Shown: one piece after another, positions 1,196 through 57,825 of the stretch | How the letters are laid out: each line of letters starts with the position of its first letter | How positions within the stretch are numbered: the first letter of the stretch is position 1 | Source of the DNA: Gemmobacter caeruleus | Lineage (GTDB): Bacteria; Pseudomonadota; Alphaproteobacteria; Rhodobacterales; Rhodobacteraceae | Direction of reading: 5' to 3' | DNA length: 64,000 nt | Assembly (NCBI RefSeq): GCF_008271655.1 | Contig: NZ_VKKX01000001.1 | Span: 1-64,000 of the forward strand | The notes under the pieces: model-generated | What the model was told of the DNA's origin: nothing | The model's input: the letters and a program-made list of their open reading frames with translations, nothing else | Database searches by the model: none | Position numbers and translations under genes: made by a program

Positions 1196-1199
1196 GCTT

Positions 1200-1403
1200 A
1201 GGGACTATTGTCTGAGCGGTCTTGGCCTCGCCTGCCTTCAGGAAAGCTATTTTCAGGACGGGTTCGCGTCCGGCCAAATCGAGCCGGTGCTGACAGACTG
1301 GTGTGCGTCTTTTACCGGGCATTACCTCTATTATCCCAGCAGGCGACAGCCGACCGCCGCGTTCAGGTTGATCCTTGATGCCCTGCGCGCGGCTGTCGAT
1401 TGA
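1200..1403 (+). pseudogene. LysR-family regulator, 5'-truncated (C-terminal fragment)
   Basis: The last 65 or so residues of a LysR effector-binding domain are present, from about LSGLGLACLQESYF to HYLYYPSRRQPTAAF, ending with TGA at 1401-1403. The pattern G-L-G-x-A-C-L-x-E and Y-Y-P-S-R-R-Q is typical of the C-terminus of LysR proteins that neighbour MFS genes. The DNA-binding domain is missing. The fragment begins where the divergent MFS gene also ends, which implies one deletion across their shared promoter. Confidence 0.7.
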
Positions 1404-1492
1404 GGCTGGCGCGCAGGGGTGATTGCGGCGCTTCGGGGCCGCGCGACCCGTCATCGGGCGATTTGGCACCTTCAAACGGGGTCAGACGACGA

Positions 1493-16549: not shown

Positions 16550-16685
16550 CGCAGGCCGCTGATTTGAAACCATAATTTTGGCACAGCAGCCGCAATCTAT
16601 GGCGCCACAGCCGGAGACGGCCCGTCCCGGCCGGACCTACCCTGTGCCCTGCACCGGCGGGAGGCCGGCACTGCGGGAGGAAATC

Positions 16686-18089
16686 ATGGATTACAGGATG
16701 CTCATCAACGGGGCGCTGGTCGCAGGGGACCGGATGCTCGACGTCATCAACCCGGCGACGGAAGAGGTTTTCGCGCGCGTGCCCCATGCGACCGAGGCGC
16801 AGCTGGATGAGGCAGTTGCCGCCGCCACCGCCGCGCAAAAGGCCTGGGCGAAAACCGGCATGGCCTAGCGCCGCGCCAAGATCGAGGAACTGGCCGCCGC
16901 CATCGGCGCCAATGCCGCCGATCTGGCCCGCACCATCACGCTGGAACAGGGCAAGCCGCTGCCCGAAGCCACCGGCGAGGTGGAATGGAGCCAGGGCTAT
17001 CTTCTGCACACCGCCTCGCTGGAACTGCCCGACCGGGTGATCCAGGATGACGCGCAATTCCGCATCGAAACCCGGCACAAGCCGCTGGGCGTGGTCGGCG
17101 CCATCGTCGCCTGGAACTTTCCGCTGCTGCTGGCCTGCTGGAAGATCGGGCCGGCGCTGATGGCGGGGAACGCGATCATCCTGAAACCCGCGCCGACGAC
17201 GCCGGTCACCGCGCTGAAACTGGGCGAGATCTGCGCCCGGGTGTTTCCGGCGGGTCTGGTCAATATCCTGACCGACAACAACGACCTTGGCCCGAAGATG
17301 ACCACCCATCCGGGCATCGCCAAGATCGGCTTTACCGGATCGTCGCAGACCGGCAAGCGCATCATGGCCAGCGCCGCCGACACGATGAAGCGCGTGACGC
17401 TGGAAATGGGCGGCAATGACCCGACCATCGTGCTGCCCGATGTGGATGTGCGCGCGACCGCCGAAAAGGTCTATGGCGGCGCCTTCTTCAACGCGGGTCA
17501 GGTCTGTCTGGCGATCAAGCGCGCCTATGTGCATGACGCGATCTATGACGAATTCTGCGACGCGCTGGCCGATATCGCCAAGGCCGCCGTGGTGGATGAC
17601 GGCATGAAGCAGGGCACCACCGTCGGCCCGATCCAGAACAAGGCGCAGTTTGAAAAGGTGAAGGGCTATCTTGAGGATGCCCGCACCAGCGGCCGCATCA
17701 TCGCGGGCGGCGAATTGCGCGGCGGCAAGGGCTATTTCATCGCGCCGACCATCGTGCGCGACGTGACCGACGGCCAGCGCATCGTGGATGAGGAACAGTT
17801 CGGCCCGATCCTGCCGGTGATCCGCTTCGACGATGTGAATGACGTGATCGCGCGGGCCAGTGCCTCGGAATACGGGTTGGGCGGGTCGGTCCATTCCGCC
17901 GATCTGGACAAGGCGACCGAGATCGCGGGCCAGATCGATTCCGGCACGATCTGGGTGAACCAGCAGCTCAATATCGGGCCGCATATCCCGATGGCGGGCT
18001 TCAAGGGGTCGGGTCTCGGGGTGGAACAGTCGGTCGAGGGGCTGGCCGAATACACCCAGATGCAGGTCATCAACGTCGCCCGCGGCTGA
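16686..18089 (+). pseudogene. Aldehyde dehydrogenase interrupted by an in-frame amber codon
   Basis: Apart from one codon this is a complete aldehyde dehydrogenase frame of 467 codons. It starts at an ATG with a strong GGGAGGAAAT ribosome-binding site, then LINGALV and NPATEE near the N-terminus, AIVAWNFPLLLACWK, FTGSSQTGKRIMA, LEMGGNDPTIV and the nucleophile in NAGQVCLAIKRA. At codon 61 a TAG (16866-16868) interrupts the sequence between KTGMA and RRAKIEELAA. Family members have Gln or Glu there, so CAG to TAG is the simplest history. Placed beside an amine dehydrogenase cluster it would have oxidised the resulting aldehyde, such as phenylacetaldehyde (inference). Confidence 0.85.
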
Positions 18090-18106
18090 GCCGCGCCGCA
18101 GCGCAT

Positions 18107-18139
18107 GCCGGCCCCTGTCGCCCTGCGGCGGGGGCCGGC
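18107..18139 (+). terminator. Hairpin between the aldehyde dehydrogenase and CoA-ligase genes
   Basis: Perfect 9-bp arms gccggcccc (18107-18115) and ggggccggc (18131-18139) around a 15-base loop in the 70-base gap. No T-run follows, so it may attenuate or process rather than fully stop transcription. Confidence 0.4.
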
Positions 18140-18159
18140 CCTGCCATGGAGTTCTGAAC

Positions 18160-19862
<1,703 letters not shown>

Positions 19863-19875
<13 letters not shown>

Positions 19876-20231
19876 TCGTCCAGATGGCAGGCAATGCAGC
19901 GGCGGGTTGGCCCGGAAGGCCGGCCCGCCGCGCTTTCGTCAAGGTGGCAGCTCTGGCACAGGTCATGGAATTGCGTCTCCAGCAGCGGGGCGACCCGGTG
20001 ATCGGTGACATGGCAGGTCATGCAGGGCGGGCCGATGGTGCGGTCGGCAAATTCGTGGTGGCAGGCGGCGCAGGGTTTGCCGAAATGCGACGAATGGCTG
20101 AAGGTCATCGGCAGCACCCGAAGGCCGCCGCCGAAACGCGCGGCACGGTCGGGCAGGGGCTGGCCCAGCGGCAGGCCGGCCACCACCAGCACGACCCCGG
20201 CCAGAAACAGCGCGGCCAACGCCCACTTCAC
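19863..20231 (-). CDS. Small tetraheme c-type cytochrome with N-terminal anchor
   Basis: 122 residues. Residues 3-20 are one hydrophobic segment (anchor or uncleaved signal); four heme motifs follow: CAACH (54-58), CMTCH (70-74), CQSCH (92-96) and CIACH (112-116). Nearby histidines (HSSH, HHEF) can be distal ligands, as in cytochrome c3/c7 folds. The GTG start at 20229-20231 overlaps the stop of the membrane cytochrome gene (GTGA). It probably takes part in periplasmic electron transfer from the amine dehydrogenase together with the b-type membrane protein (inference from gene order). Confidence 0.75.
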
Positions 20232-20824
20232 AGCGCCACCTCGCGGATCAGGACGAACAGCGCGACGGTTGCCCCGCCCGCCATCAGATAGGCCGGAACC
20301 GCCGCGACCTGCGGCCGCAGCCGCCCGAAGGCACAGATCAGCGCCAGTGCGACAAGCCCCGCCCCCTGCCACCCATGCGGCAGGTAGAACCCCGACAGCA
20401 GCACATGCAGCAGCGCCGCCGCCAGACAGGCCAGCGCCAGATGACGGTGCAGCTTGCGGAAATGGCGATAGGACGGGTGCAGGCGCAGCCGGTCGGGCAT
20501 GCGGGCCAGAATGCTCAGCCCCGCCAGCAGCAGGACTGCCGCCAGACCCAGCCACATGTGCAAGGGGCCGCCGGGCAAAAGGTAGAACCGCGCCGCCGCA
20601 TCGCCCGCCAGAAACCAGAAGGCGTGCAGCAGGGTCACCCCCAGCACCCAGTAACCCAGCCGCTCATGCGGGCGGGGCGGGCCGCGCGGGGCGGGGATCA
20701 TCTGGAAGATCAGCCCCGCCAGCGCGACAAAGCCGATTGCATTGCCGAAATCCCAGAACGCCCCGCCCGCGCGCCAGGGGTCGGCCAGGGCCGCGACCGC
20801 AAGGATCAGCCCCGCCAGCAGCAT
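20228..20824 (-). CDS. Four- to five-helix membrane b-type cytochrome
   Basis: 198 mostly hydrophobic residues with helices near 2-15, 28-44, 57-74, 89-107 and 126-147. Histidines lie inside or at the edge of helices (His67, His89, His128, His140), an arrangement that suits bis-His heme b binding as in cytochrome b561 or ferric reductase-like domains. It lies between a monoheme cytochrome c and the tetraheme cytochrome, so it may connect periplasmic electrons to the membrane quinone pool. I do not recognise a named family with certainty. Confidence 0.6.
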   Translation of the reverse strand: MLLAGLILAVAALADPWRAGGAFWDFGNAIGFVALAGLIFQMIPAPRGPPRPHERLGYWVLGVTLLHAFWFLAGDAAARFYLLPGGPLHMWLGLAAVLLLAGLSILARMPDRLRLHPSYRHFRKLHRHLALACLAAALLHVLLSGFYLPHGWQGAGLVALALICAFGRLRPQVAAVPAYLMAGGATVALFVLIREVAL

Positions 20825-20828
20825 CGGG

Positions 20829-21269
20829 TCAGGGCCAGGGATATTCCGCGATCTCGATGCCCGCGCGGCGCAATTCCTCCACCACCACGCGGCGATAGCG
20901 GACCACATCGCCGATCGGTGCCGCGCGGCGGCGCGTGACCTCGGCCTCGGTGAAATGGCCGCTGCCATCCGACCATTGATCGAGGATATAGTTCATCACC
21001 TCGGCGATCTGCGCGTCGGTCATGTTATTGGCCACCACGCCCGGCACATGCATCACATAATCGCGCCCGGATTCGATACTGACGATAGGGCCGACCGAAT
21101 TGGGGAAGCCGGGGATCCCGCCTTCCACCGTGCCCAGACCCTGCATCCCGTGACAGCCCGAACAATGCAGCACATAATTCGCGCGCGGCGAGGTGGCGGT
21201 GTTCATCGCATGGCCCGGCACCGCCGAAACCGCCAGGGCCACAAGCGCGGGCAGCAGGGTCTGTTTCAT
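20829..21269 (-). CDS. Periplasmic monoheme cytochrome c
   Basis: 146 residues with a Sec signal peptide (1-21, ending VPGHA) and one heme site CSGCH at 36-40. The fold continues with VVANNMTDAQIAEVMNYIL, a typical C-terminal class-I helix. A likely electron carrier for the amine dehydrogenase. It is 4 bases upstream of the b-type gene and 6 bases downstream of the broken cytochrome gene. Confidence 0.75.
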   Translation of the reverse strand: MKQTLLPALVALAVSAVPGHAMNTATSPRANYVLHCSGCHGMQGLGTVEGGIPGFPNSVGPIVSIESGRDYVMHVPGVVANNMTDAQIAEVMNYILDQWSDGSGHFTEAEVTRRRAAPIGDVVRYRRVVVEELRRAGIEIAEYPWP

Positions 21270-21275
21270 CGTTGC

Positions 21276-21678
21276 TCACTCCTCGGTCGGGCGCATGGCC
21301 TTCAGGTCGTTCTGGGTGGTGGTGCTGGCCCGCATCGCGGCGATCTGGTCGGGGGTGACCGATTGCGCGCTCTGCCCCAGATCGGCCAGAACCCAGCTGG
21401 TGATCGCGGCCAGTTCCTCGTCCGTGGTGCCGGCGACCGGCACCATGACCAGACCCATGTAGCGCGTGCCCTGCACGGTCAGCGGCTTGGCCATGCCCTT
21501 GGTCACGATGCCGCTGATATAGGTCGGCGCCTGATCGCCAAGCGCCTGCCAGAAGCCCGGCCGGTTCAGCGGCGGCGCAATGCGCCTCGAACAATGCGGC
21601 GCCGTCAGTGCCGGCCCCCTCTGCGAGGGCCGGGCCGGACAACAGGCCCGCAAGGGCGATGAAGACAGTCTTGCGCAT
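21276..21678 (-). pseudogene. Class-I cytochrome c with deleted heme site and frameshift
   Basis: The start (ATG at 21676-21678, overlapping the aauA stop as TGATG) opens a signal peptide MRKTVFIALAGLLSGPALA and GAALFEAHCA. The sequence then changes frame near 21575-21583: the continuation PPLNRPGFWQALGDQAPTY, down to the stop at 21276, is in another frame. In this family CAACH plus about ten residues ahead of PPLN is expected between the two parts. The heme-binding CxxCH is therefore gone along with the frame. The A. faecalis aau cluster has a small monoheme cytochrome at this position. Confidence 0.8.
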
Positions 21679-22205
21679 CAATCGGCCATGCCCACGACGA
21701 TCGACACGGTGCAGTGATAGCCCTTGTCGGTATTGGCGGTGCACCAGTTGATGTCGTTGTAGAGACCCATCTGATAGCCGGGACGTTCGCCCTTGTTGTT
21801 GTTGCAGAAGGTGGCGGTCGGCACGAAGGGCTTGCCGCAGCAGTCGTTGTAGCTGATCAGGTAATCCTTGCCGTCCTCGGGGTTGGAACAGGTGCCGACC
21901 CAGGACACCGCCGAAACGGTGCTGCCCGGCGGGCAGGAGGTGAGCGAACCGCCGGATTCCTCGCACAGGAAACCGTCGATGGCACATTGCCGCCAGTAGC
22001 TGCACGGATCCGAGGCGCCCCCCTCGGTCGAGGCAAAGGCGCGGCGGTCAAAGGGCAGTACCGGCACCGAGACGGCGGCGCCCAGCAGGGCAAGGCCGGT
22101 CCGGGCCAGAAAGGACCGCCGGCCGTTGCGGCGGGCAGAGGAACGGATATTCGCCTCGGTCGCGCCGTCGAGGCGCTTGAGGAAGCTGTCGATGAAGCGG
22201 GTCAT
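21678..22205 (-). CDS. aauA: TTQ amine dehydrogenase small subunit (AauA/MauA family)
   Basis: 175 residues with a long twin-arginine signal (NGRRSFLARTG near 28-37). The tryptophans that become tryptophan tryptophylquinone are Trp102 (SAVSWVGTC) and Trp154 (NDINWCTAN), and the catalytic aspartate is Asp121 in SYNDCCGK. Wording around these sites (DGKDYLISY, ERPGY) is closer to aromatic amine than to methylamine dehydrogenase. Ten cysteines remain where the family has twelve or more; residues 83 (Glu) and 132 (Thr) replace the partners of one known disulfide. The periplasmic enzyme oxidises primary amines to aldehydes. Confidence 0.85.
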   Translation of the reverse strand: MTRFIDSFLKRLDGATEANIRSSARRNGRRSFLARTGLALLGAAVSVPVLPFDRRAFASTEGGASDPCSYWRQCAIDGFLCEESGGSLTSCPPGSTVSAVSWVGTCSNPEDGKDYLISYNDCCGKPFVPTATFCNNNKGERPGYQMGLYNDINWCTANTDKGYHCTVSIVVGMAD

Positions 22206-22235
22206 GATCGGTTTCCTTCTTGATGTCACGATCGG

Positions 22236-22826
22236 TCAGTTGATCATCCCGGCCACAGCGGCCTGATAGGACGGGATGCCGGTTTCAGAGGCGGTGAACA
22301 GGCTTTCCAGCTGTTCACGGCTGTTCACGAGGCCCTTGGCGGCCACCTTGCCCTCTTTGTCGAGCAGGACGGCGAAGGGCAGTTTGGAGACCTTGAAGCT
22401 CATTCCCAGTTCCGAGGACAGGACATAGGGAAAGGCCTCCAGGTTCTCGGTCTCGATCAGGCGGCGGTGCAATTGCTCGCGCCCGTCAGAGGCCATGATC
22501 ACATCCAGCCAGCCCTGTTCGTCGGCCCGGATGGATTTGAGCGCGGGCAGCAGCGCCTTGCAGATCGGGCAGCTGGTGGAGAGGAAGAACACCAGCTGCG
22601 CCCGCCCCTCCGCTTGGCCAAGGGTGAGGCCCGGCCCGTTCAGGTTGGGCAGCGCCAGCGGCGGCACCTTGTCGCCCAGGCCCGGCCCCGCATCCGATAC
22701 CATCGCGCCCACCGGCGAGACGCGCTCGAACAGGATGCCGATCTGACGGGCCAGGGCAAAGATCACCGCAAGCTGGATCAGCACCACGACCCAGAGCAGG
22801 ATGTTGGAAAAGATCAGAAGGGTCAT
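22236..22826 (-). CDS. aauD: AauD/MauD thioredoxin-like maturation protein
   Basis: 196 residues: an N-terminal membrane anchor (residues 3-25) and a periplasmic thioredoxin fold with active site STSCPICK (Cys86, Cys89). MauD-type proteins help form or isomerise the many disulfides of the small subunit before TTQ synthesis. The gene lies between aauE and aauA as in the known aau and mau clusters. The start at 22824-22826 puts the hydrophobic anchor first and leaves 1 base to the aauE stop. Confidence 0.83.
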   Translation of the reverse strand: MTLLIFSNILLWVVVLIQLAVIFALARQIGILFERVSPVGAMVSDAGPGLGDKVPPLALPNLNGPGLTLGQAEGRAQLVFFLSTSCPICKALLPALKSIRADEQGWLDVIMASDGREQLHRRLIETENLEAFPYVLSSELGMSFKVSKLPFAVLLDKEGKVAAKGLVNSREQLESLFTASETGIPSYQAAVAGMIN

Positions 22827-22827
22827 G

Positions 22828-23358
22828 TCAAAGGTCTCCCTGCCGGATATGGGGCAGATGCGAGGCGAGGCGCTCGATGATGGTGTAGATGGCGACCAGG
22901 ACCAGCGCGCCGGCGATGGCCACCGCCGCCCCCGCGCCGGGCAGGGCCGCGGCGGGCAGCAGCGCCACGCCCAGCGACAGCGCGGCCAGCACCGCGTTGC
23001 GCCCCAGCGTGAAGCCCGACACCAGCTGCGGCAGGCCGCCACAGCCACAGTCGATGCGGCTGCGGCCCTGCATCAGCGCCGTGGCCATCAGCAGGCCGTA
23101 GCCCGCGAACAGCCCCGCCGCCAGCAACCCGCCCCAGGGCCGGGTGCCCGGCACCAGCAGCATCAGCACCGTCGCGCCCTCGGCCAGGATCAGGCCCCGG
23201 ACGATCGGCGCGGCCCAGGCCTCGGGCACCAGCCCGTAACCCTGGGCAAAGCCCACCGTCTCCAGAAACGCCTCGACCTTGTGCCAGACGGCCCGTGCCA
23301 GCACGATCACCAGAAAGCTGGTGATCGTCACCGAGGCGAGTGCGGCCAGCGCGCCCAT
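22828..23358 (-). CDS. aauE: AauE/MauE membrane maturation protein
   Basis: 176 residues, four to five hydrophobic helices of the MauE/DoxX type, with a cysteine pair in RIDCGCGG (Cys104, Cys106) on a loop. Family members work with MauD to move electrons for disulfide formation in the small subunit. One base separates it from both neighbours aauB and aauD, so all are co-transcribed. Confidence 0.83.
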   Translation of the reverse strand: MGALAALASVTITSFLVIVLARAVWHKVEAFLETVGFAQGYGLVPEAWAAPIVRGLILAEGATVLMLLVPGTRPWGGLLAAGLFAGYGLLMATALMQGRSRIDCGCGGLPQLVSGFTLGRNAVLAALSLGVALLPAAALPGAGAAVAIAGALVLVAIYTIIERLASHLPHIRQGDL

Positions 23359-23359
23359 C

Positions 23360-24496
23360 TCAGTAATCGGTCGCGATCATGGTGGCGAAGGCGGCCAGAC
23401 CTTCGCGCGCGGCGCCTTCGGTCAGGCTGACGCTGTCGCCCAGCGTCACGTCATAGCGATGCACGCCGCCCATGTGATCGACGCCCACCAGTTGCGGCAC
23501 CTTGCCCATGCTCACCGCGATGTTGGATTCGCCATGCGCCGCGCTGCGGCCGACCAGCTTTTCGCTTTCGGTGTTGATCGCCCAGATCTCCTCGGCCGGG
23601 CGCTTGTGCGACCCGTCCGCGGCGGCCGAATGCATCAGCACGAACAGCGTATGCGAGGCCGCGTGATAGGCCATCAGGTTATAGCCCCCCGGTGCCCAGC
23701 CATCGACGGCAAAACCGATGGTCTTTGACAGCACCGGTGCTGCGCCGCTGTCATCGACCATCAGCAGCTTGCCATCATAGGTGACATAGGTCAGCAGCCC
23801 GTCCACCCGCACCGCATTGCCAAAGATCGGCGTGCTGGCGGCGTCAAAGATCTTGTCCGATTTCGCGGGTTCCGACACGGTGCCATCGGCGGCGACGGTG
23901 TATTTCACCAGGCTGCCATCGCCGCAGATCGTGGTGAAGGCCAGACCCTCGGTCGCGGGATAGGCGGTCCAGCAGCCGGGCGTCGGCACCTCGACCAGAT
24001 CCTTGCCGGCGGTCAGATCGACCACATTGACCGAGGTCGCGGGCGTGGCGTTCTGGACGAACAGATATTTGCCATCGGCCGACAGGTTCAGCGCGCCGCG
24101 CTGGCTCAGCGTTTCAGCCATCTTGTCCGACACCACGATCTCGCGCTTTACCGCCAGGGTCGCGGGGTCGAATTCCTCGATCACGGCCTCGATCGGGCCG
24201 CGGGTAAAGCGCTTCATGTAGACCGATCCGGTGAACAGCGACGGGGCGCCGGGCGACATCAGCATCTGGCTGAACGTGCCCATGCCCATATTGCCCTCCA
24301 GCGAAAGGTCATCGGCATTCAGCACCGAGATCTGGCTGGGGCCGGAAATGCCCATATCCATCAGAAAGATATGGTTCCCTTCCGAGATGCGCTCCTCGAC
24401 GACAAGGGTTTCCGGCTGGATCCCGGCTTCCTGTGCAAGCGCCTGAGCGCCCGAGGCGGCCAGGACCGAAAGTGAAAGGATGAGATGGTTTCTCAT
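23360..24496 (-). CDS. aauB: TTQ amine dehydrogenase large subunit (AauB)
   Basis: 378 residues: signal peptide 1-22, then a seven-bladed beta-propeller (blade motifs such as NHIFLMDMG, GALNLSADGKYLFVQNATP, YHAASHTLFVLMH). It matches the large subunit of aromatic amine or methylamine dehydrogenase, which scaffolds the small subunit in the periplasm. The large subunit is first in the operon, as in the A. faecalis aau order B-E-D-A. I used the ATG at 24494-24496, two codons after a TTG. Confidence 0.83.
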   Translation of the reverse strand: MRNHLILSLSVLAASGAQALAQEAGIQPETLVVEERISEGNHIFLMDMGISGPSQISVLNADDLSLEGNMGMGTFSQMLMSPGAPSLFTGSVYMKRFTRGPIEAVIEEFDPATLAVKREIVVSDKMAETLSQRGALNLSADGKYLFVQNATPATSVNVVDLTAGKDLVEVPTPGCWTAYPATEGLAFTTICGDGSLVKYTVAADGTVSEPAKSDKIFDAASTPIFGNAVRVDGLLTYVTYDGKLLMVDDSGAAPVLSKTIGFAVDGWAPGGYNLMAYHAASHTLFVLMHSAAADGSHKRPAEEIWAINTESEKLVGRSAAHGESNIAVSMGKVPQLVGVDHMGGVHRYDVTLGDSVSLTEGAAREGLAAFATMIATDY

Positions 24497-24782
24497 TGGC
24501 AACCTGCTGAACTGAGTTGACGTTTGATGCAGAGCGGTGCGGCCGCCCCAAGGGGGGCCGCGTCAGGGCGGGCGTCGGTGACGGGTCAGATATCCGCGCG
24601 GGTCGATGGGCATCGCGATGCCGGGCCGGGGCATTCCGGCCGTTCCTCCGCGACTCGCGGCGCTGATTGTCCTCGACCGCCTCCCCTCGGTCTTGGACCA
24701 TCAAGAGACCATGATGTCGCAGCCCGGTCTTGGACGCCCGCGCCAGAAGCCTTGCGACTTGCGCCAAAAAATGCCTGTCAGA
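24497..24782 (-). promoter_or_regulatory. Upstream region of the amine dehydrogenase operon
   Basis: These 286 bases between the FeaR-like gene and aauB hold no gene I can support and must contain the aau promoter. An AraC/FeaR activator site is expected here, but I could not pick out a convincing repeated operator by eye. Confidence 0.4.
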
Positions 24783-25697
24783 TCAATGCTCACGCCGCGC
24801 TTGCAGGCATTGGTCGTAATATCCGCCGGGCGACATGTCATAGATCTGGCGGAAGCTGCGGTTGAAATGCGACAGGTCGCTGAACCCGGCGCGATAGGCC
24901 AGATCCGAGATGGCGGGCCGCAGGTTCAGCCCCGCCGCCCGGTGCAGATGTCCCAGCACCAGTTTCATGCGCCGTTCGCACAGCACGCGGGTAAAGGTGG
25001 TGCCATTGTCGCGGAAATCGCGCTGCAACTGGCGGCGCGACATATGCACCAGCCCGGCCAGCCGCTCGATCGTGAAATCGCTTTCCGAAACGTGGCGGTC
25101 GATCGTGTCGCAGATATGGCGGAACCGGCCATGCCGGTCGCGAAAGCCCGCGGCATCGCCGGCGCGATCCTCGGCGCGGAACATCATCGCGATGAAATCG
25201 AACAGGTAATCGGCATGGGCCTCATCGGGGCCGCCGGCGTCGATCAGCGCCTCCAGGCTGGGGCGCAGCGGATGGGCGCGCGCCACGCGCCGCCCGGTGG
25301 CCGGATCGCGCGCCACGCCCTCAAGACACAGGCTGCGCGGCAGATGCACCGACAGGAACGAGGCGCTGTTGCCATTGAAGGTCAGTTCGGCGGGCAGGGT
25401 CGAATCCATCAGCAGGCTGTCGCCGGGCGTGAGCAGCGCCTCGCGGCCATTATGGGCGATCTGCATCTCGCCGGTCTTCTGCATCAGCAGGAACATGTAT
25501 TCGTGATCGTCACGCCGGATGCCGGCGCGCAGGCGCTCGATCTGGTCGATCTCGCATTCCATCTCGGCGATATCGACGCCATGGCGACGACGCAGCCGGA
25601 AAGTTCCGACATTCTTGCGCGAATTCTTCAGTGGCTTGCTGTAATAATGCCCGCAATTGGACAGGATGCAGCTGTTCCACTCTTCAAATCACATCAT
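24783..25697 (-). pseudogene. FeaR-like AraC-family activator with a stop at codon 3
   Basis: The full-length frame of 304 codons matches the FeaR length (about 300). It has a strong AGGGGAG site 8-9 bases ahead of ATG ATG, directly followed by TGA (25689-25691), then FEEWNSCILSNCGHYYS, typical of the N-terminus of this family. The C-terminal AraC domain is intact (ISDLAYRAGFSDLSHFNRSF). CGA to TGA is the simplest cause. Reinitiation at ATG 25560-25562 would give 259 residues without the first 45. FeaR-type proteins activate amine oxidation genes, here probably aau. Confidence 0.8.
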
Positions 25698-25993
25698 GCC
25701 TTTTACTCCCCTAAAAGGCGACATGCAGCGATTTGCCGGCGTTCCGGGCGGCCTTGCGACCGCCGGAGATCTGCCGCGCCCTCCCTCCCCGAAGGGGCGG
25801 CGGTCCGCGTGATACTGCGTCACGGCGGCGAATCGCTCAAGGGGGCATATAGCATGACAGGCGGCGCGTCCGGGGGCGCGAAATCCCCGGCACAGTTTCA
25901 GGCGCGGGCGGAAGCTGAGTGGGGCGATGGATGAATCTGTCAGATATGACCTATAATCTGCGCTTATACGCCATATATGGTATGATAGTGAAA
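25698..25993. other. Gap between the FeaR-like gene and hipA
   Basis: No gene is supported. The end nearest hipA is AT-rich and holds the palindrome ccatatatgg (25971-25980) followed by tatgatag, close in wording to the repeats upstream of hipB at the other end of the module. Confidence 0.4.
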
Positions 25994-27235
25994 TTACATC
26001 GCCAGCGCCTTCTCCATCTCCTGATGGGCAAAGGCCGGTTCCAGCTGGTCCAGATCGCCCTCGCGCAGCCCGTGGCGCCGCATCAGCCCCGGCCAGAGAT
26101 CGCGGATCCGGCGCGCCATGACACCCGCGCGGTGCAGCGCGTCGCCTTGCCTCAGGCCAAAGAACACGGCCGCCTCGATCGCCATGTCGATGGACGCCGC
26201 AAAGGGCGCGCCCTCCAGAATGGCGGTCTTGAGCTGGCGGTGCCGCTCGGGCTGCGGGTTCACGTCGAACAGGGGCGAAAGGCTCCATTGTCCGGCGCCG
26301 GCATAGATGAAACCGTGGTTCTTCAGATGGTCGTCGGTATTGGTGACCAGCACGGTAAAGACGATCCGCATCCACAATTCAACCAGATCGGCGCAGGGGT
26401 CGTCGCTGTGCTGGCGGATGAACTGGGCGATTTCGGTATAGGCGCCCTGTTCGGTGCCGCGGCGCTCCAATGCGGTGCGGGCCGAGATATAGGGGATGCG
26501 CGCCGGCCCGTCGCGGTCAAAGCGGCGGATCAGCGCGATAGGGCTGTCGGTGGTTTCCAGCACGAGCCGGGCCTCGGGCGCATTCAGCCCCACGGCCCGC
26601 GCCAGATGCAGCGTCGCGACCTCGATCCGCTCCACCGGGCTTGCATCGGTGGCAGAGGAAAATTTCGCGATCCAGAGCTGGCCATCGTCCAGCACATTGG
26701 CCTTGGGCCGCGCCCCGCCAATCGAACCGCCGGCACCCGCCATCTGCCGCAGGGCCGCGTTGGAAACCTCGCCGCGCCGTTCGATCCTGGCCGCAATGCC
26801 GCGCAGAGTTTCAAGGTCGATCAGCCGCGGGATCGGGTCGGCGCTGCCGGTAATCACCTGACCCTGCCCGTCGCAAAACCGCAAGGCGCCCTGGCGGGTC
26901 GCGTCATCGGTCAGGGTCAGCATGTCGAATTCGCTCAGCCCGGCGCCGTGCAGCCGCTCCATCAGCATACGGCCCCAGGCATCGGGTGCTGCGTCCTGAA
27001 ACGGCCCGGTCAGGCTGTCGCGCGGATCGCCGCTGCGCCCTGACGAGGCAAAGAACGGCGCAAGGCCCAAAGGCAGATCCGGCGCCAGCGCAAAGGCCCT
27101 GCCATCGGCGATCCAGTCGGGGCCATAGCTGAATTCGGAATGCTGGCGCCCGCGATCCCGGCCAAAGCGCAGCTTTCCGACATGCACCAGCCCCTCGCCC
27201 AGATGGACCTCGGCCTCTTGTTTCGTCGCGGCCAT
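25994..27235 (-). CDS. hipA: HipA-type serine/threonine kinase toxin
   Basis: 413 residues of the HipA/YjjJ kinase family: a HipA N-domain (LHVGKLRFGRD, PFFASSGRSGDPRD), a Gly-rich loop SIGGARPKANV, the lysine in LWIAKFSS, and the catalytic loop TNTDDHLKNHGFIY followed by LSPLFDVNP, the metal-binding Asp. Relatives phosphorylate a tRNA synthetase and slow growth. The start overlaps the antitoxin stop (TGATG), so the pair is coupled. All visible kinase motifs are intact. Confidence 0.85.
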   Translation of the reverse strand: MAATKQEAEVHLGEGLVHVGKLRFGRDRGRQHSEFSYGPDWIADGRAFALAPDLPLGLAPFFASSGRSGDPRDSLTGPFQDAAPDAWGRMLMERLHGAGLSEFDMLTLTDDATRQGALRFCDGQGQVITGSADPIPRLIDLETLRGIAARIERRGEVSNAALRQMAGAGGSIGGARPKANVLDDGQLWIAKFSSATDASPVERIEVATLHLARAVGLNAPEARLVLETTDSPIALIRRFDRDGPARIPYISARTALERRGTEQGAYTEIAQFIRQHSDDPCADLVELWMRIVFTVLVTNTDDHLKNHGFIYAGAGQWSLSPLFDVNPQPERHRQLKTAILEGAPFAASIDMAIEAAVFFGLRQGDALHRAGVMARRIRDLWPGLMRRHGLREGDLDQLEPAFAHQEMEKALAM

Positions 27236-27597
27236 CAGAAGCTGACCCCCTTGCGGGATGACCCCGGGGCAGGGGGGGCATCGCCCGGCGCGGCACTGGC
27301 CGGCTTGAACCGCCGCCCGCGCTTGGGCAGGGCGTCAAGCGCGCGCGACAGGCCGACGGGGTCGGTTTCCGGCGCCATCAGATCGGCCAGACGTTCCGGG
27401 CTGCCAAGGGCCGCCAGCACGGCGGCAAGATTGCCGATCCCGACCCCGGCATCGCCCTTTTCCAGCCGGATCAGCGTGCGCTCCGACACATCCGCCCGCG
27501 TGGCGAGTTCGGCAATGGAAAAGCGCCGCGCCAGCCGGGCCAGACGCAGGTTCTGGCCAAGATCGCTGAGGGAACGCAGCGCCTTGAGGTTGGACAT
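27235..27597 (-). CDS. hipB: HipB-type helix-turn-helix antitoxin
   Basis: 120 residues from the ATG at 27595-27597, which has GAGG upstream. An Xre/HipB helix-turn-helix is clear (LGQNLRLARLARRFSIAELA, then ADVSERTLIRLEKGD). The C-terminal 40 residues are basic and proline-rich (GRRFKPASAAPGDAPPAPG), longer than in E. coli HipB, and may contact HipA. It should repress its own promoter and neutralise HipA. An alternative ATG at 27613-27615 is possible but would place the start inside the repeat region. Confidence 0.8.
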   Translation of the reverse strand: MSNLKALRSLSDLGQNLRLARLARRFSIAELATRADVSERTLIRLEKGDAGVGIGNLAAVLAALGSPERLADLMAPETDPVGLSRALDALPKRGRRFKPASAAPGDAPPAPGSSRKGVSF

Positions 27598-27605
27598 GAT
27601 CGCCT

Positions 27606-27646
27606 CATATGGCATGGATACCCCATATATATGCCTGATATGGCAT
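27606..27646 (-). promoter_or_regulatory. Direct repeats upstream of hipB, likely operator
   Basis: Two copies of atatggcat (in catatggcat 27606-27615 and gatatggcat 27637-27646) flank an AT-rich core with catatatatg. Spacing is 31 bases, about three helical turns. Such repeats directly ahead of a hipB gene are the expected place for autoregulation. Confidence 0.5.
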
Positions 27647-27690: not shown

Positions 27691-28665
27691 TCACGCAGGC
27701 GTCAGACCGGCATCGAGCAGGGTCTGGATGTGGCGCGGGCCGACCGGGCGGATGCCCAGCGGGTTGAGCGCCTTGATCGAATAGTAACCGCGCGTGATGT
27801 GATCCATGTTCACCGTCTCGCGCACCCCCGGCAGGTTCAGGATCCGCGCCATATAGGCCGAGAGGCGCGGGTAATCCGCGATCTGGCGCAGGTTGGTCTT
27901 GAACAGCCCGTGATAGGCCGCGTCAAAGCGGATCAGGGTGACGAAGGTGCGGATATCGGTCTCGGTCAGGCGGTCGCCGAACAGATAGTCGCCGCTCAGC
28001 CGCGCCTCCAGCAGGTCGAGCGTTTCGAACACGCCCGCCACGGCCTCGTCATAGGCGGCCTGCGTGCTGGCGAAGCCCGCCTTGTAGACGCCATTGTTCA
28101 GCCGGTCATAGATCACCGGGTTCAGCGCCTCGATCTCCCCGGCCAGATCGGCGGGGTAAAGCCGCAGATCCGAGGGCAGCAGATGGTCAAAGGCGGTGTC
28201 GAACATGCGCAGGATGTCGGCGCTTTCGTTGCTGACCATGACGCCCTGCTGCATGTCCCACAGCACCGGCACCGTGGCCCGGCCGGTGAAATGCGGGTCG
28301 GCGCGGGTATAGATCTGGTGCATGAATTCGGCCCCGAACAGCGGATCCGCATCCGCGCCGGGGTAACCGCCAAAGCGCCAGCCCTGATCGGTCAGCACCG
28401 GGTTGACCACCGTCACCGGGATCATCGCCTCCAGCCCCTTGAGCTTGCGCGCGATCAGCGTGCGCGAGGCCCAGGGGCAGATCAGCGCGACATAAAGCCG
28501 GTAGCGCCCGGGTTCTGCCGCGAAGCCGCCCGTCCCGGTCGGGCCGGGGCGGCCATCGGGGGTGATCCAGTTGCGAAAGCTGGACACCTGCCGCACGAAC
28601 CGGCCCTGTTCATCGGCCTTCTGCACCGGCTGCCAGTTTTCCACCCATTTTCCGTCCACAAGCAT
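27691..28665 (-). CDS. yqjG: Glutathionyl-hydroquinone reductase (YqjG/PcpF type)
   Basis: 324 residues of the Xi-class glutathione transferases: N-terminal thioredoxin fold with active cysteine in ALICPWASRT, VVNPVLTDQGW, then a helical domain with ESADILRMF and the conserved NNGVYKAGFASTQAAY and DIRTFVTLIRFD. These enzymes reduce glutathionyl-hydroquinones back to free hydroquinone. Start at 28663-28665 with AAGGAGT 7 bases upstream. Last gene of a four-gene operon with a dioxygenase, a DoxX protein and a reductase. Confidence 0.88.
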   Translation of the reverse strand: MLVDGKWVENWQPVQKADEQGRFVRQVSSFRNWITPDGRPGPTGTGGFAAEPGRYRLYVALICPWASRTLIARKLKGLEAMIPVTVVNPVLTDQGWRFGGYPGADADPLFGAEFMHQIYTRADPHFTGRATVPVLWDMQQGVMVSNESADILRMFDTAFDHLLPSDLRLYPADLAGEIEALNPVIYDRLNNGVYKAGFASTQAAYDEAVAGVFETLDLLEARLSGDYLFGDRLTETDIRTFVTLIRFDAAYHGLFKTNLRQIADYPRLSAYMARILNLPGVRETVNMDHITRGYYSIKALNPLGIRPVGPRHIQTLLDAGLTPA

Positions 28666-28676
28666 GCGCGCACTCC

Positions 28677-29507
28677 TTACCGGGCGTGAAACACGAAGGA
28701 CCGCATCGAGATCGAGCCGAGGTCGATCGCATCGGTCATGTAGGTCAGATTGTCCCCGCCATCCGAGGCGCCCGCAATGGTCAGCGCGGGCAGATAGTGA
28801 TCGACCGAGGGATGCGCCATTTGCAGCAGCGACCCCAGCTTGGCCCGATTGGCAAGCGTCGCGAAATCGCGGTCGGTCAGGCGGTCGGCGAACAGGCTGT
28901 CGAATTCCTGCGCGAAATCCAGCGGCCGGCTGTTCGGCCCCCATTGCACCGCGCGCAGATTATGCACCACATTGCCCGACCCCAGGATCAGCACGCCGCG
29001 ATCGCGCAGCTGCGCCAGCTCGCGCCCGATTTCCAGCTGGTAGTCCAGCCCCTTGGACATGTCGATGGAGATCTGGAATACCGGCACATCGGCATCGGGA
29101 TAGAGGAATTTCAGCACCGTCCAGGCGCCGTGATCCAGGCCCCAGGTGTCGTCCTCCTCTGCGTGATGGCTGGCCAGCAGGCTGACCACCTCGCGCGCCA
29201 GTGCCGGGTCGCCGGGGGCGGGATAGCGTTGCTGGAACAGCGCCTCGGGAAAGCCGTAGAAATCATGGATGGTCTTCGGCATGGCCGAGACATCGACCAG
29301 CGTCGTGCCCCGCGTCATCCAATGCGCCGAAACGACAAGGATCGCGCGGGGGCGCGGCAGGTCGCGGCCCAGTTCGGTCCAGGCGCGGCTGTATTTCGTA
29401 TCCTCGATGGCGTTCATCGGGCTGCCATGGCCCAGAAAGACCAGCGGCATCCGGTCACTGGGGGCCAGCCCGTCGCGCAACGAGGCAAGGGTCCGGGTCG
29501 TGTTCAT
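28677..29507 (-). CDS. DODA-type extradiol dioxygenase (YgiD/LigB family)
   Basis: 276 residues of class III (LigB-type) ring-cleaving dioxygenases: VFLGHGSPMNA, SAHWMTRGTTL, and the later LILGSGNVVHNLRAV, with MAHPSVDHYLP near the end, giving the conserved metal-binding histidines. Family knowledge points to catechol-like substrates such as DOPA, but the bacterial members mostly lack a proven substrate. Position in an operon with hydroquinone reductase suggests quinone or catechol clearance. Confidence 0.83.
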   Translation of the reverse strand: MNTTRTLASLRDGLAPSDRMPLVFLGHGSPMNAIEDTKYSRAWTELGRDLPRPRAILVVSAHWMTRGTTLVDVSAMPKTIHDFYGFPEALFQQRYPAPGDPALAREVVSLLASHHAEEDDTWGLDHGAWTVLKFLYPDADVPVFQISIDMSKGLDYQLEIGRELAQLRDRGVLILGSGNVVHNLRAVQWGPNSRPLDFAQEFDSLFADRLTDRDFATLANRAKLGSLLQMAHPSVDHYLPALTIAGASDGGDNLTYMTDAIDLGSISMRSFVFHAR

Positions 29508-29567
29508 CGTCGCATCTCCTGTCGCCGGAAGGGAAGGGGAGGGCGCCGCGCGGGCGCCCGCCGATGG

Positions 29568-29984
29568 TCAGGCAAACTGGCCCAGCAGCCGGTCAAGGAC
29601 GGGCAGGCGCAGCGCCAGGGCGCCCCGGCCCAGCAGGGCGATCACCCCCTGAACCATCGCCCAGAACAGAGGGAATTCCCAGCCGCCGCCTGCGCCGGAA
29701 AAAAGCCAGCCATTGCCGGAATGCACCCAGACCGCGCCCAGCAGCACCGGGATCAGCGCCACCGCCACCAGCCGGGTCGCCACGCCGAGGATCAGCGCCG
29801 CCCCGCCCACCAGCTCGGCCAGGATGGTCAGATAGGCCAGCCCGCCCGGCAGGCCGAGGCTTTCGAAATAGCCCACGGTGCCGGCGACGGTAAACACATT
29901 CACCTTCAGCAGCCCATGCGCCAGAAACAGAACCCCGCTGGAAACCCGAAGCAGCGCGGCGGCGATATTGACATTGCGATCCAT
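29568..29984 (-). CDS. DoxX-family membrane protein
   Basis: 138 residues, four hydrophobic helices, with the DoxX signature RVSSGVLFLAHGLLKV at the N-terminus and LAELVGGAALILGVATR in the middle. In E. coli the DoxX gene yqjF is next to yqjG, and the same pairing is seen here, two genes apart. Role probably in membrane redox or thiol stress (inference). Confidence 0.8.
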   Translation of the reverse strand: MDRNVNIAAALLRVSSGVLFLAHGLLKVNVFTVAGTVGYFESLGLPGGLAYLTILAELVGGAALILGVATRLVAVALIPVLLGAVWVHSGNGWLFSGAGGGWEFPLFWAMVQGVIALLGRGALALRLPVLDRLLGQFA

Positions 29985-29996
29985 TTTCCTGTCCTT

Positions 29997-30572
29997 TCAG
30001 GCGATTTGCCATTGCGGCGCGATGGCGGTGCCAAGGCCCAGCACATAGCCGAACTGGATGTTCAGAAAGCCCAGCGGCTCCAGATACCGCGCGTTCTTCA
30101 GCGGGCCGGCATCGACCGGCACCAGACCGATATCGCGGGCAAGTTGGCTCACCCGGTCCCGCGCCGCCGCATCGTCCGAGGCGACGAAGGTCTGGAGCGG
30201 CTGGCCGTTGACGGCAAGGCCCGTGCCGTAATGCTGCGCGAAGATGGTGTTGAACGCCTTCACGACCGAGGCGCCGGGCAAAAGCCGGGCGATTTCCTCG
30301 GCGGCAGAGCTGTCATGCCCGACGACAAGGCCCGAGAAATCGGCATTGATCGGGTTCGACAGGTCGATGACCAGCTTGCCGGCGAAATCGGCCACCTTGG
30401 CCACATCCGCCGCCGCGCCATAGGGCGTGGCGAGGATCACCACATCCGCCCCGGCCACGGCCGCCTTCAGATCGGCGTCGCGGCCATGGGCCACCGCCGC
30501 ATGCCCGGCCTTCGCCAGCGCCCCGGCAAGCCCGGAGCCGATATTTCCATTCCCGATGACCGCGATATTCAT
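29997..30572 (-). CDS. NAD(P)-dependent reductase, F420-reductase-like (NADP_Rossmann)
   Basis: 191 residues starting with the dinucleotide-binding motif NIAVIGNGNIGSGLAGALAKAGH, then VVILATPYGA and DLSNPINADFSG, as in the coenzyme F420-dependent NADP reductase-like family. Such proteins in bacteria without F420 act as NAD(P)-binding reductases of unknown substrate. It is first in the operon, divergent from a LysR gene. Confidence 0.78.
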   Translation of the reverse strand: MNIAVIGNGNIGSGLAGALAKAGHAAVAHGRDADLKAAVAGADVVILATPYGAAADVAKVADFAGKLVIDLSNPINADFSGLVVGHDSSAAEEIARLLPGASVVKAFNTIFAQHYGTGLAVNGQPLQTFVASDDAAARDRVSQLARDIGLVPVDAGPLKNARYLEPLGFLNIQFGYVLGLGTAIAPQWQIA

Positions 30573-30698
30573 CTGCTTTTCCTTTCTGCCGCCCCCTTCG
30601 GGCGCCGTGTTTCGATGACCGATATTTACGGCTTGGCAATCATGAACAAAATGGCGATGTTATGGATTGACTATCACCTATATGTTCCGAATGATCCG

Positions 30699-31595
30699 AT
30701 GGACACGCTTGACCAACTCCGCGCCTTTGTCGCCGTGGCGCAGGCCGGTTCCTTTACCGCCGGCGCCGATCAGATCGGCGTGTCGAACCGGCTAAGCTCG
30801 AAATATGTGGCCGAGCTGGAGGCCCGGCTGGGTGTGCGGCTGTTTCAGCGCACCACGCGCAAGGTTGGCCTGACACCGGCGGGCGAGGATTTGCTGGCCC
30901 GCGCCCCCGCCCTGCTGGAGGAGCTGGAGACCCTGCTGGCCGGCATCGCCGAAGGCTCGCGCGGGTTGACCGGCACGATCCGCATCGCGGCGCCGGTGAC
31001 CTTTGGCGAGATCTATGTCGGGCCGATGCTGGGGCGCTTCGCGGCACTGCATCCGGGGCTGACCTTCGATCTGCGGCTGGATGACGGCTATACCGATCTG
31101 GCGGCGACCGGCGTCGATCTGGCCTTTCGCATTGGCGCCACGGGGATGCAGTCGCTCCGGGTGCGCAAGCTGGGGGTGGTGCGGTCGGTGCTGGTGGCCA
31201 GCCCTGCCCATGTCGCCACCAATGGCACCCCCGACAGCCCCGAGGCGCTGGCGCGGCACGCCTGCATCCTGGACAGCAATCGCCAAATGCCGCGCCGCTG
31301 GGTCTTTCTGCAAGGCGGGGCCGAACATGTCGTGCATGTCGAGGGGCGGTTTCAGGTCAATTCGGGGCGCGCGGCGGGGGCACTGGCCGCCGCCGGGCTG
31401 GGCCTGGCCTATGTGCCGCGCTTTGCCATCGCCGAGGCGCTGCAAAATGGCGCCCTGATCCCGGTGATGACAGGCTATGAGGGCACCGCCACGACACTGA
31501 GCGCGGTTTACCTGGAAGGGCGCGCCCTGCCGCGCAAGGTGCGCGCGCTGATCGACTTTGCCCATGACGACATCCGCGCGGCGGGCATCCTGTAA
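30699..31595 (+). CDS. LysR-family regulator of the quinone-stress operon
   Basis: 298 residues with the winged helix LDQLRAFVAVAQAGSFTAGA and SNRLSSKYVAELEARLGVRL, then an effector domain (TIRIAAPVTFGEIYVGPMLG) of the PcaQ/DmlR-like subgroup. The start at 30699 gives the usual N-terminus MDTLDQL; the frame is open far upstream but only antisense to the neighbouring genes. The 126-base gap to the divergent reductase gene is AT-rich and probably holds the shared operator. Confidence 0.82.
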   Translation: MDTLDQLRAFVAVAQAGSFTAGADQIGVSNRLSSKYVAELEARLGVRLFQRTTRKVGLTPAGEDLLARAPALLEELETLLAGIAEGSRGLTGTIRIAAPVTFGEIYVGPMLGRFAALHPGLTFDLRLDDGYTDLAATGVDLAFRIGATGMQSLRVRKLGVVRSVLVASPAHVATNGTPDSPEALARHACILDSNRQMPRRWVFLQGGAEHVVHVEGRFQVNSGRAAGALAAAGLGLAYVPRFAIAEALQNGALIPVMTGYEGTATTLSAVYLEGRALPRKVRALIDFAHDDIRAAGIL

Positions 31596-31688: not shown

Positions 31689-32630
31689 TCAGCGCCGCAG
31701 GATGACCTCGAACACCGCGCCCGGCCCGTCGCCGATACAGCGGGCCTCGCCGTCATGGGCGCGTGCGGCGTCGCTGGCAATCGACAGGCCAAGGCCGCAT
31801 CCGCCCGATTGATCGGGGTCGAGCCTGACGAAGCGGTTGAAGATGCGCTCGCGCTGGTCGGGTGGCACACCCGGACCATCATCGGCAAAGCGCAACGTCA
31901 CCGATTCCGGCTCGAAGGTCACCGATACATCAAGGCAGCCGCCTGCCCGCAAACCATATTTCGCGGCATTGTCGAGCAGGTTGACCACCATTTCCTCGAT
32001 CAGCACAGAGTCGCAATCGACCGGCCTGGGCGTTCCCGTCACCGAAAACCCCACCTCAATGTCGTGCGGCAACTGGGCTTCGGCAAAGGCGCGGACCCGC
32101 TCGCGGACCACCGCAAGCAGATCGGTCGGCTGGTTGAATTCCTTGAGGCTGCGGCCCCGCACCCGTTCCAGCGACAATAGCTGCGAGGTCAGCCGGCTGG
32201 TTGCCTGCGCGCTTTGCGCAAGGCCGGCAACGCGGGCGCGCAGTTCCGTCTCGTCCGGGGCGCTCATGGCGGCCTCGGCCTGGCTTTGCATCGCCGCGAC
32301 AGGGTTGCGCATCTGATGCGCGGCATCCGAGATGAACCCGTCGCGCAGGGCGAAGGCGCGGGCCAGACGCTCGAACAGCGAATTCGTCGTTTCCACCAGC
32401 GGGCGCAGTTCCGGAGGAACCCAGCGGCGGATCGGGCGCAGATCATCGGCGCTGCGCTGGCCGATCGCCTCGCGCAGATCAAGAAGCGGCTTCAGGCCCA
32501 ACTGGATCCCGAACCACAGGATCAGCGCGGCCGTGACCATCAGCGTGCCGAGAAGGATGATCGACTGGATCACCAGCTTGCGCGACAGCGGGTGCCGCTG
32601 GGTCACGGTCTGCCAGACCTCGACCGTCAC
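31689..32630 (-). pseudogene. TctE-like sensor histidine kinase, N-terminally truncated at the IS21 remnant
   Basis: Remaining 313 codons keep the second membrane helix (residues 22-42), HAMP-like linker, HisKA with His105 in SDAAHQMRNPVAAM, N-box NLLDNAAKYG and G-boxes DDGPGVP and GGCGLGL. The sensor domain and first helix are missing: the frame runs into IS21 sequence at about 32632, and the residues before (VTVEVWQTVTQRHPL) are normally in the middle of the protein. No response regulator gene adjoins it. Whether a GTG at 32628 gives a soluble-sensing fragment is unknown. Confidence 0.75.
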
Positions 32631-33030
32631 CCAGCCGACTCGACTTCGTCATCCTCGACGAGCTCGGCTATCTGCCCTTCGCGCAATCCGGCGGCCAGCT
32701 CCTGTTCCACCTGATCAGCCGCCTCTACGAGCGCACCTCGATCATCGTCACCACCAACCTCGCCTTCGGCGAATGGCCGTTCGCCATGGGCCTCGGACCA
32801 GTGGCGGCTCCATGGCTCACTCTTCGGCGACGCAAAGATGACCACCGCGCTCCTCGACCGCCTGACCCATCACTGCGAGATCGTTGAGACCGGCAACGAG
32901 TCCTGGCGCTTCAAAAACCGTGCCTGACCCCGATCTGGGCCTGACCCGCCTAGACTCTATGATCAGTTCCGCCGGCTCAGGCCCAGATCTCAACACCACA
33001 AGCGGGGTCAATTTTGTGCGCCGATTGACA
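32631..33030 (+). mobile_element. IS21-family remnant (3' istB and right inverted repeat)
   Basis: The block begins inside istB at the kinase junction and ends with a terminal repeat at 33001-33030 (core ggggtcaattttgtgcgccg then attgaca), typical of one group of IS21 elements. Before it, gatctgggcctga near 32931 reappears inverted at about 32978-32990. No istA and no left end are present, so the element cannot move. Confidence 0.7.
32634..32927 (+). pseudogene. istB helper ATPase, 3' fragment with internal disruption
   Basis: Frame one reads RLDFVILDELGYLPFAQSGG and [13 protein letters not shown], which is the Walker B and sensor region of IstB. After about 32781 a stretch of roughly 38 extra bases is met, and the normal continuation [20 protein letters not shown] to the TGA at 32925-32927 is in another frame. 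The gene is thus both 5'-truncated and internally damaged. Confidence 0.75.
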
Positions 33031-56567: not shown

Positions 56568-56568
56568 C

Positions 56569-57549: not shown

Positions 57550-57585
57550 CGGAATGCAACGATAACAACAGAGGAGCAGTGTCGG

Positions 57586-57670
57586 AAAAGGATAGGCCTC
57601 CCGAATGGAACCACCCGGAAGGCCCGCGCAAACCACAGGGCGCCAACCCTGAGAATGCTCATCTTCTAGC
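57586..57670 (-). ncRNA. Antisense ctRNA (incompatibility RNA) between repB and repC
   Basis: On the minus strand a promoter with -35 TTGCGT (57700-57705), a 17-base spacer and -10 TAGGTT (57677-57682) starts a short RNA near 57670. It has a hairpin cagggcgccaaccctg (57636-57651, plus-strand wording) and ends with a terminator stem (arms 57616-57624 and 57595-57603) followed by CCTTTT. This is the layout of repABC ctRNAs, which block repC translation and set copy number and incompatibility. Confidence 0.82.
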
Positions 57671-57825
57671 CAGAGCAACCTAGCGCAGGCCCGAATCACA
57701 CGCAACATCGCATCGCGGTGATCCGATGTCTTTTGTCCTTTTTCTGGGGATAACGGGCGCGTTTCTCGCTGCGATCCTGCAAGAATGCCCTTTCGGTGGC
57801 CCTGATCGTTCCGTGTGAACGCATC

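What the first reader, a model, noticed from the sequence alone, without database searches (positions are those of the whole stretch)
16686..25697. Aromatic amine pathway in decay: three independent lesions in one functional unit
The genes at 16.7-25.7 kb make one sensible route: amine to aldehyde (AauBA), aldehyde to acid (aldehyde dehydrogenase), acid to acyl-CoA (ligase), with cytochromes as electron sink and a FeaR-like activator. Three members carry separate disabling changes (amber codon 61 in the dehydrogenase, heme-site loss in a cytochrome, stop at codon 3 in the activator), while the catalytic amine dehydrogenase and its maturation genes are intact. Loss of use of the whole pathway explains all three better than chance; read errors are the alternative.
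Basis: partly seen in the sequence, partly recalled or inferred. Interest (0 to 1): 0.75.

Follow-up and report, generated by a model that had tools for sequence, protein, structure and literature searches.

The report
Recently broken aromatic-amine degradation gene cassette
A gene cassette for degrading aromatic amines carries three separate and apparently recent inactivating mutations in this Gemmobacter-like bacterium, while the closest relatives examined carry the same cassette whole: an ordinary but unusually clean example of a pathway being lost.

Summary
Against three colinear cassettes (Defluviimonas denitrificans, Gemmobacter lutimaris, G. caeni; 80-82% identical over 9.2 kb) the window copy shows three disabling changes: TAG at codon 61 of the aldehyde dehydrogenase, a 44-nt out-of-frame deletion that removes the only CXXCH of the first monohaem cytochrome, and TGA at codon 3 of the FeaR-like activator. 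The relatives' copies show no stop in 33 of 33 genes. A clean 44-nt deletion is not a read error. The other 8 of 11 genes are open, and the broken genes show no significant excess of amino-acid changes, so the loss looks recent. Phenylacetyl-CoA epoxygenase genes are present in this genome. Both cassette promoters carry a 21-bp-spaced TGGCRC repeat, conserved in 7 of 7 replicons with the activator, so activator loss probably silenced both arms; the order of events is inferred. The cassette sits in different surroundings in each carrier. Clustering of lesions against the rest of the window is only moderately significant (p = 0.035). This is a pseudogenising catabolic operon: a known kind, modest interest.

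The parts
16579..16605 (+). 21-bp-spaced direct repeat TGGCAC-N15-TGGCGC upstream of the ALDH gene (predicted activator site)
   Evidence: found at the same place in L009, L010, L011
16686..18089 (+). aldehyde dehydrogenase gene, broken: TAG at codon 61 (16866-16868)
18160..19875 (+). AMP-forming acyl-CoA ligase, open
19863..20231 (-). class III (c3-like) cytochrome with four CXXCH, open (start codon approximate)
20228..20830 (-). membrane protein with a sub-threshold Pfam match to ferric-reductase-like transmembrane component, open
20829..21269 (-). second monohaem cytochrome c (cyt2), open
21276..21678 (-). first monohaem cytochrome c (cyt1), broken: 44-nt out-of-frame deletion that removes the CXXCH; the shifted frame runs on to 21025, 217 aa
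21678..22205 (-). aauA-like small (TTQ) subunit of aromatic amine dehydrogenase, open
22236..22826 (-). mauD-like thiol-disulfide protein, open
22828..23358 (-). mauE-like membrane protein, open
23360..24496 (-). aauB-like large subunit of aromatic amine dehydrogenase, open
24740..24766 (-). 21-bp-spaced direct repeat TGGCGC-N15-TGGCGC upstream of aauB
   Evidence: found at the same place in L009, L010, L011
24783..25697 (-). FeaR-like AraC-family activator gene, broken: TGA at codon 3

Best explanation
This is a complete catabolic cassette for primary aromatic amines (amine to aldehyde by a TTQ amine dehydrogenase, aldehyde to acid by the ALDH, acid to acyl-CoA by the ligase, then probably into the phenylacetyl-CoA pathway) that has recently been inactivated in this lineage. 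Shown: three separate lesions, each absent from every relative examined; colinear copies without stops in three other genomes; the same direct repeat before both transcription units. Inferred: the FeaR-like activator binds that repeat and switches on both units, so that loss of the activator alone would silence the pathway, after which hits in the ALDH and the cytochrome cost nothing. The opposite order, an enzyme lost first, is possible. Loss of use of the whole pathway is the inferred cause.
For: Three lesions unique to this copy; no stop in 33 of 33 genes of three relatives' cassettes; CXXCH in 11 of 11 cyt1 relatives, a sense codon in 6 of 6 ALDH relatives, no stop in 7 of 7 activator relatives. 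The cytochrome lesion is a clean 44-nt gap. Best solved relatives of both dehydrogenase subunits are aromatic amine dehydrogenase. The regulator's best NCBIfam match is FeaR. The 21-bp-spaced repeat is found in 7 of 7 replicons that carry the FeaR-like regulator and in 0 of 6 examined loci where it was not found, p = 0.0006. PaaA-type subunit in 4 of 4 cassette carriers. The ALDH-ligase pair follows a quinohemoprotein amine dehydrogenase cluster in Leisingera.
Against: Eight of 11 genes are open. On the window branch the broken genes have 13 amino-acid to 38 silent unique codon changes, the intact genes 44 to 101 (p = 0.59), and the same broken genes in the three other lineages 40 to 198 (p = 0.16): no significant relaxation. 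Clustering against the rest of the window is p = 0.035. The repeat alone is not specific: 57 matches in the genome against 30 for the reversed control. The FeaR match is below its cut-off. No conspecific strain or reads were available. Substrate not tested.
Confidence: 0.85

Rival explanations
1. Sequencing or assembly error made the apparent stops and frameshift; the pathway works.
For: No reads were seen; the genome is a 55-contig draft.
Against: The cytochrome lesion is a clean 44-nt gap; both stops are single-codon changes in otherwise clean frames; the assembly is rated 99.99% complete, which speaks for quality but not for single bases.
Confidence: 0.04
2. Partial remodelling: the dehydrogenase is kept for nitrogen release from amines, the aldehyde being handled by other ALDHs, and only the carbon arm and the activator are lost.
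For: aauB, mauE, mauD and aauA are open; this genome has 23 ALDH matches, the cassette's own included; cyt2 is open and could carry electrons (inference).
Against: The activator is also broken and its predicted site lies before aauB; cyt1 follows the small subunit in 11 of 11 relatives examined; the next-best ALDH in this genome is 39% identical.
Confidence: 0.08
3. The lesions are unrelated chance hits in a replicon region that tolerates damage, not a sign of loss of this pathway.
For: Two probable remnants also lie outside the cassette (IS21 fragment near 32.6 kb, LuxR-type remnant near 53.4-54.0 kb); the outside scan is insensitive to small lesions and 11 of 51 outside segments were not checked against Pfam.
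Against: 3 of 11 against 2 of 51, p = 0.035; 0 of 33 in the relatives' cassettes.
Confidence: 0.1

Closest known systems
aau cluster of Alcaligenes faecalis (gene order recalled, no paper on it read here) and the annotated aau cluster on a Pseudomonas aeruginosa plasmid (LT969519.1)
   Same: aauB-mauE-mauD-aauA followed by monohaem cytochrome c genes (two in LT969519.1)
   Different: Here a ferric-reductase-like membrane protein and a c3-type cytochrome follow, and an ALDH-ligase arm is attached; three genes are broken
Colinear cassettes in Defluviimonas denitrificans DSM 18921, Gemmobacter lutimaris YJ-T1-11 and G. caeni DSM 21823 (L009-L011)
   Same: Same 11 genes, order and orientation, 80-82% DNA identity
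   Different: No stops, no deletion; different genomic flanks
E. coli FeaR with tynA and feaB (PMC4640556, passages seen)
   Same: An AraC-family activator switches on an amine-oxidising step and an aldehyde dehydrogenase that feed paa
   Different: The amine-oxidising enzyme is a copper amine oxidase; the regulator here scores below the FeaR cut-off
Quinohemoprotein amine dehydrogenase cluster on a Leisingera caerulea plasmid (L069)
   Same: Homologous regulator plus ALDH-ligase pair, with the same 21-bp-spaced repeat
   Different: The amine dehydrogenase is the quinohemoprotein kind, not the TTQ kind

Membership tests
Aromatic amine dehydrogenase (TTQ type, AauBA) | Both subunits closer to solved AADH than to methylamine dehydrogenase | tested here: met
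   best AADH E-values 2.8e-43 and 3.6e-43; best MADH 1.2e-35 and 4.3e-20
Aromatic amine dehydrogenase (TTQ type, AauBA) | The two TTQ tryptophans and the catalytic aspartate (which residues these are is recalled) | tested here: met
   alignment: W of SWVGTC, W of NWC and D of SYNDCC all match
Aromatic amine dehydrogenase (TTQ type, AauBA) | Activity on aromatic amines | not testable with these tools
   no assay
Methylamine dehydrogenase (mau) | Score over the NCBIfam equivalog cut-offs for both subunits | tested here: not met
   138.9 against 196.85 and 94.1 against 454.45 (the accessory MauD does pass its own cut-off, 189.3 against 188.6)
FeaR (NCBIfam equivalog) | Score over the cut-off | tested here: not met
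   151.5 against 199 for the part after the stop; hence 'FeaR-like'
MauG-dependent TTQ maturation | MauG over the family cut-off in the genome | tested here: not met
   0 of 4 cassette carriers over the cut-off; best match in this genome 165.9 against 443.85 bits
Pseudogene | Disabling change absent from all relatives examined | tested here: met
   for ALDH, cyt1 and the activator
Pseudogene | Relaxed protein-level selection | tested here: not met
   p = 0.59 and 0.16; fits recent loss (crude upper bound for the neutral part of the branch 0.07 to 0.19)

The most novel reading that the evidence does not exclude
A swappable amine-catabolism unit: one FeaR-like activator with a TGGCRC-N15-TGGCRC operator governs an ALDH-ligase arm that is joined either to TTQ or to quinohemoprotein amine dehydrogenases, and the 9.2-kb version moves as a discrete block between unrelated contexts. 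In this strain the activator was hit first, so the strain is a snapshot of regulator-first pathway loss with open catalytic genes still in place.
Probability: 0.35. Interest if true: 0.45.

Novelty: new member of a known kind. Interest (0 to 1): 0.33.

Why it matters
It is a clean case of a catabolic operon caught early in its loss, with stop-free sister cassettes for comparison. By comparison it also suggests an operator for FeaR-like regulators of amine dehydrogenase clusters, and it points to the first monohaem cytochrome as a constant partner of aromatic amine dehydrogenase. None of this overturns a known principle.

Tried and rejected
Empty site: the left flank (agmatinase, LysR) and a right-flank stretch were searched in 11 genus genomes, the own one included, and seven stretches were fetched. 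In the four relatives with strong matches to both flanks (G001, G005, G006, G009) the two lie on different contigs, and no fetched stretch holds both, so no empty site was shown. Closer copy on plasmids: none of 29 records covers 80% of the cassette in one place. Relaxed selection: tested, not significant. Suppressor tRNAs: not searched beyond the window, which has no tRNA gene. MauG: none over the cut-off in the four carriers. The membrane protein plus c3 cytochrome as a maturation system: not pursued, since neither is among the annotated genes of the Pseudomonas and Haematobacter clusters (those gene tables are incomplete). The repeat as a genome-wide marker: rejected, not specific. Literature: six searches, listings only, showed no held paper devoted to the aau cluster; (aauB with amine dehydrogenase) gave 0 papers. 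One paper was opened, passages only.

Dropped or faulty: only codons unique to one lineage were counted; the 32-codon N-terminal piece of cyt1 aligned too poorly and was left out. In one search my coordinates put mauD and cyt1 (all rows) and aauB (L010, L011) out of frame, so the stops printed there mean nothing; one search replaces them. In one search the gap-placement test failed for L010 and L011, which differ in length elsewhere; the CCGCC repeats were read by eye and are seen on both sides only in L011; the first script found no locus files by the names I used; the second repeated it.

Full report
What is there. The window is the start of contig C2 of a 3.99-Mb, 55-contig draft, of the genus that holds Gemmobacter caeni and G. 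lutimaris (matched by gene position). ParA-like (55401-56564), ParB/RepB-like (56566-57546) and RepC (57757-58911) genes lie on the same contig, so the replicon is probably a plasmid or chromid (inference). The unit of the finding has 11 genes: ALDH and acyl-CoA ligase on the + strand; FeaR-like activator, aauB, mauE, mauD, aauA, two monohaem cytochromes, a ferric-reductase-like membrane protein and a c3-type cytochrome on the - strand. Both dehydrogenase subunits match solved aromatic amine dehydrogenase better than methylamine dehydrogenase.

The lesions. Three genomes hold the same cassette colinearly, bounded at nearly the same points: L009 (Defluviimonas denitrificans), L010 (G. lutimaris) and L011 (G. 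caeni), 80-82% identical over about 9.2 kb. Against them the window copy shows the TAG at ALDH codon 61, the 44-nt gap in cyt1 that takes the CXXCH, and the TGA at activator codon 3. No stop was met in the matched part of 33 of 33 relatives' genes. In wider relatives, counts that include these three, ALDH position 61 is a sense codon in 6 of 6, the activator has no stop in 7 of 7, and cyt1 has CXXCH in 11 of 11. In L011 the missing stretch is flanked by CCGCC on both sides, in L009 and L010 on one side only (by eye), which would fit a slippage deletion if the ancestor resembled L011. The shifted frame of cyt1 runs on into cyt2 and ends at 21025, 217 aa, so it may also disturb cyt2 translation (inference).

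Consequences. From the first ATG/GTG/TTG after the ALDH stop, a product would lack the first 98 residues and the first 106 positions of the Pfam profile. After the activator stop the first start codon lies 42 codons on. The other eight genes are open (with mauD and cyt1 frames disregarded).

How recent. Pairwise dN/dS of the broken genes is close to that between the relatives; cyt1 is somewhat higher in one pair (0.38 window-L009 against 0.21 and 0.27 for L009 with L010 and L011). Codon changes unique to the window are 13 amino-acid to 38 silent in the broken genes and 44 to 101 in the others (p = 0.59); the same broken genes in the other three lineages give 40 to 198 (p = 0.16). A crude bound puts the neutral part of the branch at no more than 0.07 to 0.19, depending on assumptions. 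The loss is therefore young against the divergence from these relatives.

Regulation. A direct repeat TGGCRC-N15-TGGCRC lies 80 bp before the ALDH start and 243 bp before the aauB start. The same 21-bp spacing occurs at both places in L009, L010 and L011, before the ligase and aauB in L012, before ALDH in L013, before aauB and before ALDH on one Paracoccus plasmid where the two lie about 115-120 kb apart, and before ALDH in Leisingera. In the ten sources all 11 matches with that spacing lie at these promoters; four further matches have other spacings. Replicons with the FeaR-like gene have it in 7 of 7 cases; L014, L015, L016, L017, L065 and L067, where no such gene was hit, in 0 of 6 (p = 0.0006). 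Limits: the loci are not independent; the pattern was read from these promoters first; L017 is short and was searched for the regulator only (a short match, E 0.003); L067 has an annotated helix-turn-helix gene beside aauB that was not hit. The pattern has 57 matches in the whole genome against 30 for its reversed control, and 2 in the window with 0.34 expected, 5 of 100 shuffles reaching 2, so only its place and conservation speak for it. E. coli FeaR regulates an amine oxidase and activates a phenylacetaldehyde dehydrogenase gene (PMC4640556, passages), which fits one switch for both arms.

Pathway context. A PaaA-type subunit over the family cut-off is present in this genome and in all 4 cassette carriers, 8 of 12 genomes searched. 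In D. denitrificans (G020 by position) the paa matches lie 15-19 kb from aauB on the same contig. In Leisingera the ALDH-ligase pair follows a quinohemoprotein amine dehydrogenase cluster; in Haematobacter an oxepin-CoA hydrolase gene lies about 2.6 kb beyond the second cytochrome gene of the aau cluster, after hemC. This supports arylacetaldehyde and arylacetyl-CoA chemistry; the substrate is inferred.

Mobility. L010 and L011, from two species of one genus, share only the cassette (9.3 kb, 90%) in their 20-kb stretches. L009, L010 and L011 share no flank with the window apart from one 119-bp and one 40-bp weak match. No terminal repeat or transposase was recognised at the ends (by eye; no dedicated search). 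The block has moved, or its surroundings have been reshuffled; how is unknown.

Chance. In the window, 3 of 11 cassette genes against 2 of 51 other coding segments carry a recognised lesion (p = 0.035, or 0.016 with one). The outside scan would miss small lesions, and by its own score the activator lesion does not stand out (7.0 bits, below 16.0 and 9.0 bits for two outside segments judged unbroken). The contrast may therefore be overstated.

Verdict. What is added: the lesions are absent from every relative examined, look recent, and the activator was probably the switch for both arms. It is a new instance of a known thing.

Noticed in passing
window 55401-58911: ParA-like, ParB/RepB-like and RepC genes (repABC type) on the same contig as the cassette.
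   Followed up: partly
window 27712-31591: About 3.9 kb beside the cassette is 93-96% identical to a stretch of genome G001 (G. caeni by position), far above the cassette's own 82%: probably a recent exchange.
   Followed up: partly
window 32561-32887: Fragment of an IS21 IstB-like gene at the edge of a stretch of several hundred bases without coding signal.
   Followed up: no
window 53370-53957: LuxR-type regulator without a start codon in the first 89 codons of its frame, beside a Hint-domain gene: probable N-truncated remnant.
   Followed up: partly
window 25698-25719: Inverted repeat GCCTTTT...AAAAGGC with the likely ribosome-binding site in its loop, directly before the activator start; a similar hairpin in L009, L010, L011, not in L012, L013, L068, L069.
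   Followed up: partly
window 21681-22205: AauA has about 10 cysteines in the aligned part where A. faecalis AADH has about 14 (counted by eye); the three relatives look the same, so fewer disulfides seems a trait of this clade.
   Followed up: no
window 25994-27615: HipA-like and HTH (HipB-like) gene pair directly beside the cassette.
   Followed up: no
L066 11691-12684; L012-L014: A ferric-reductase-like (L066: hypothetical) protein and a c3-type cytochrome follow the two monohaem cytochromes in these alphaproteobacterial clusters but are not among the annotated genes of the Pseudomonas and Haematobacter clusters; role unknown.
   Followed up: partly
window 504-1478: Gene near the contig start whose weak MFS match covers only about half of the profile; not resolved whether it is whole.
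   Followed up: no
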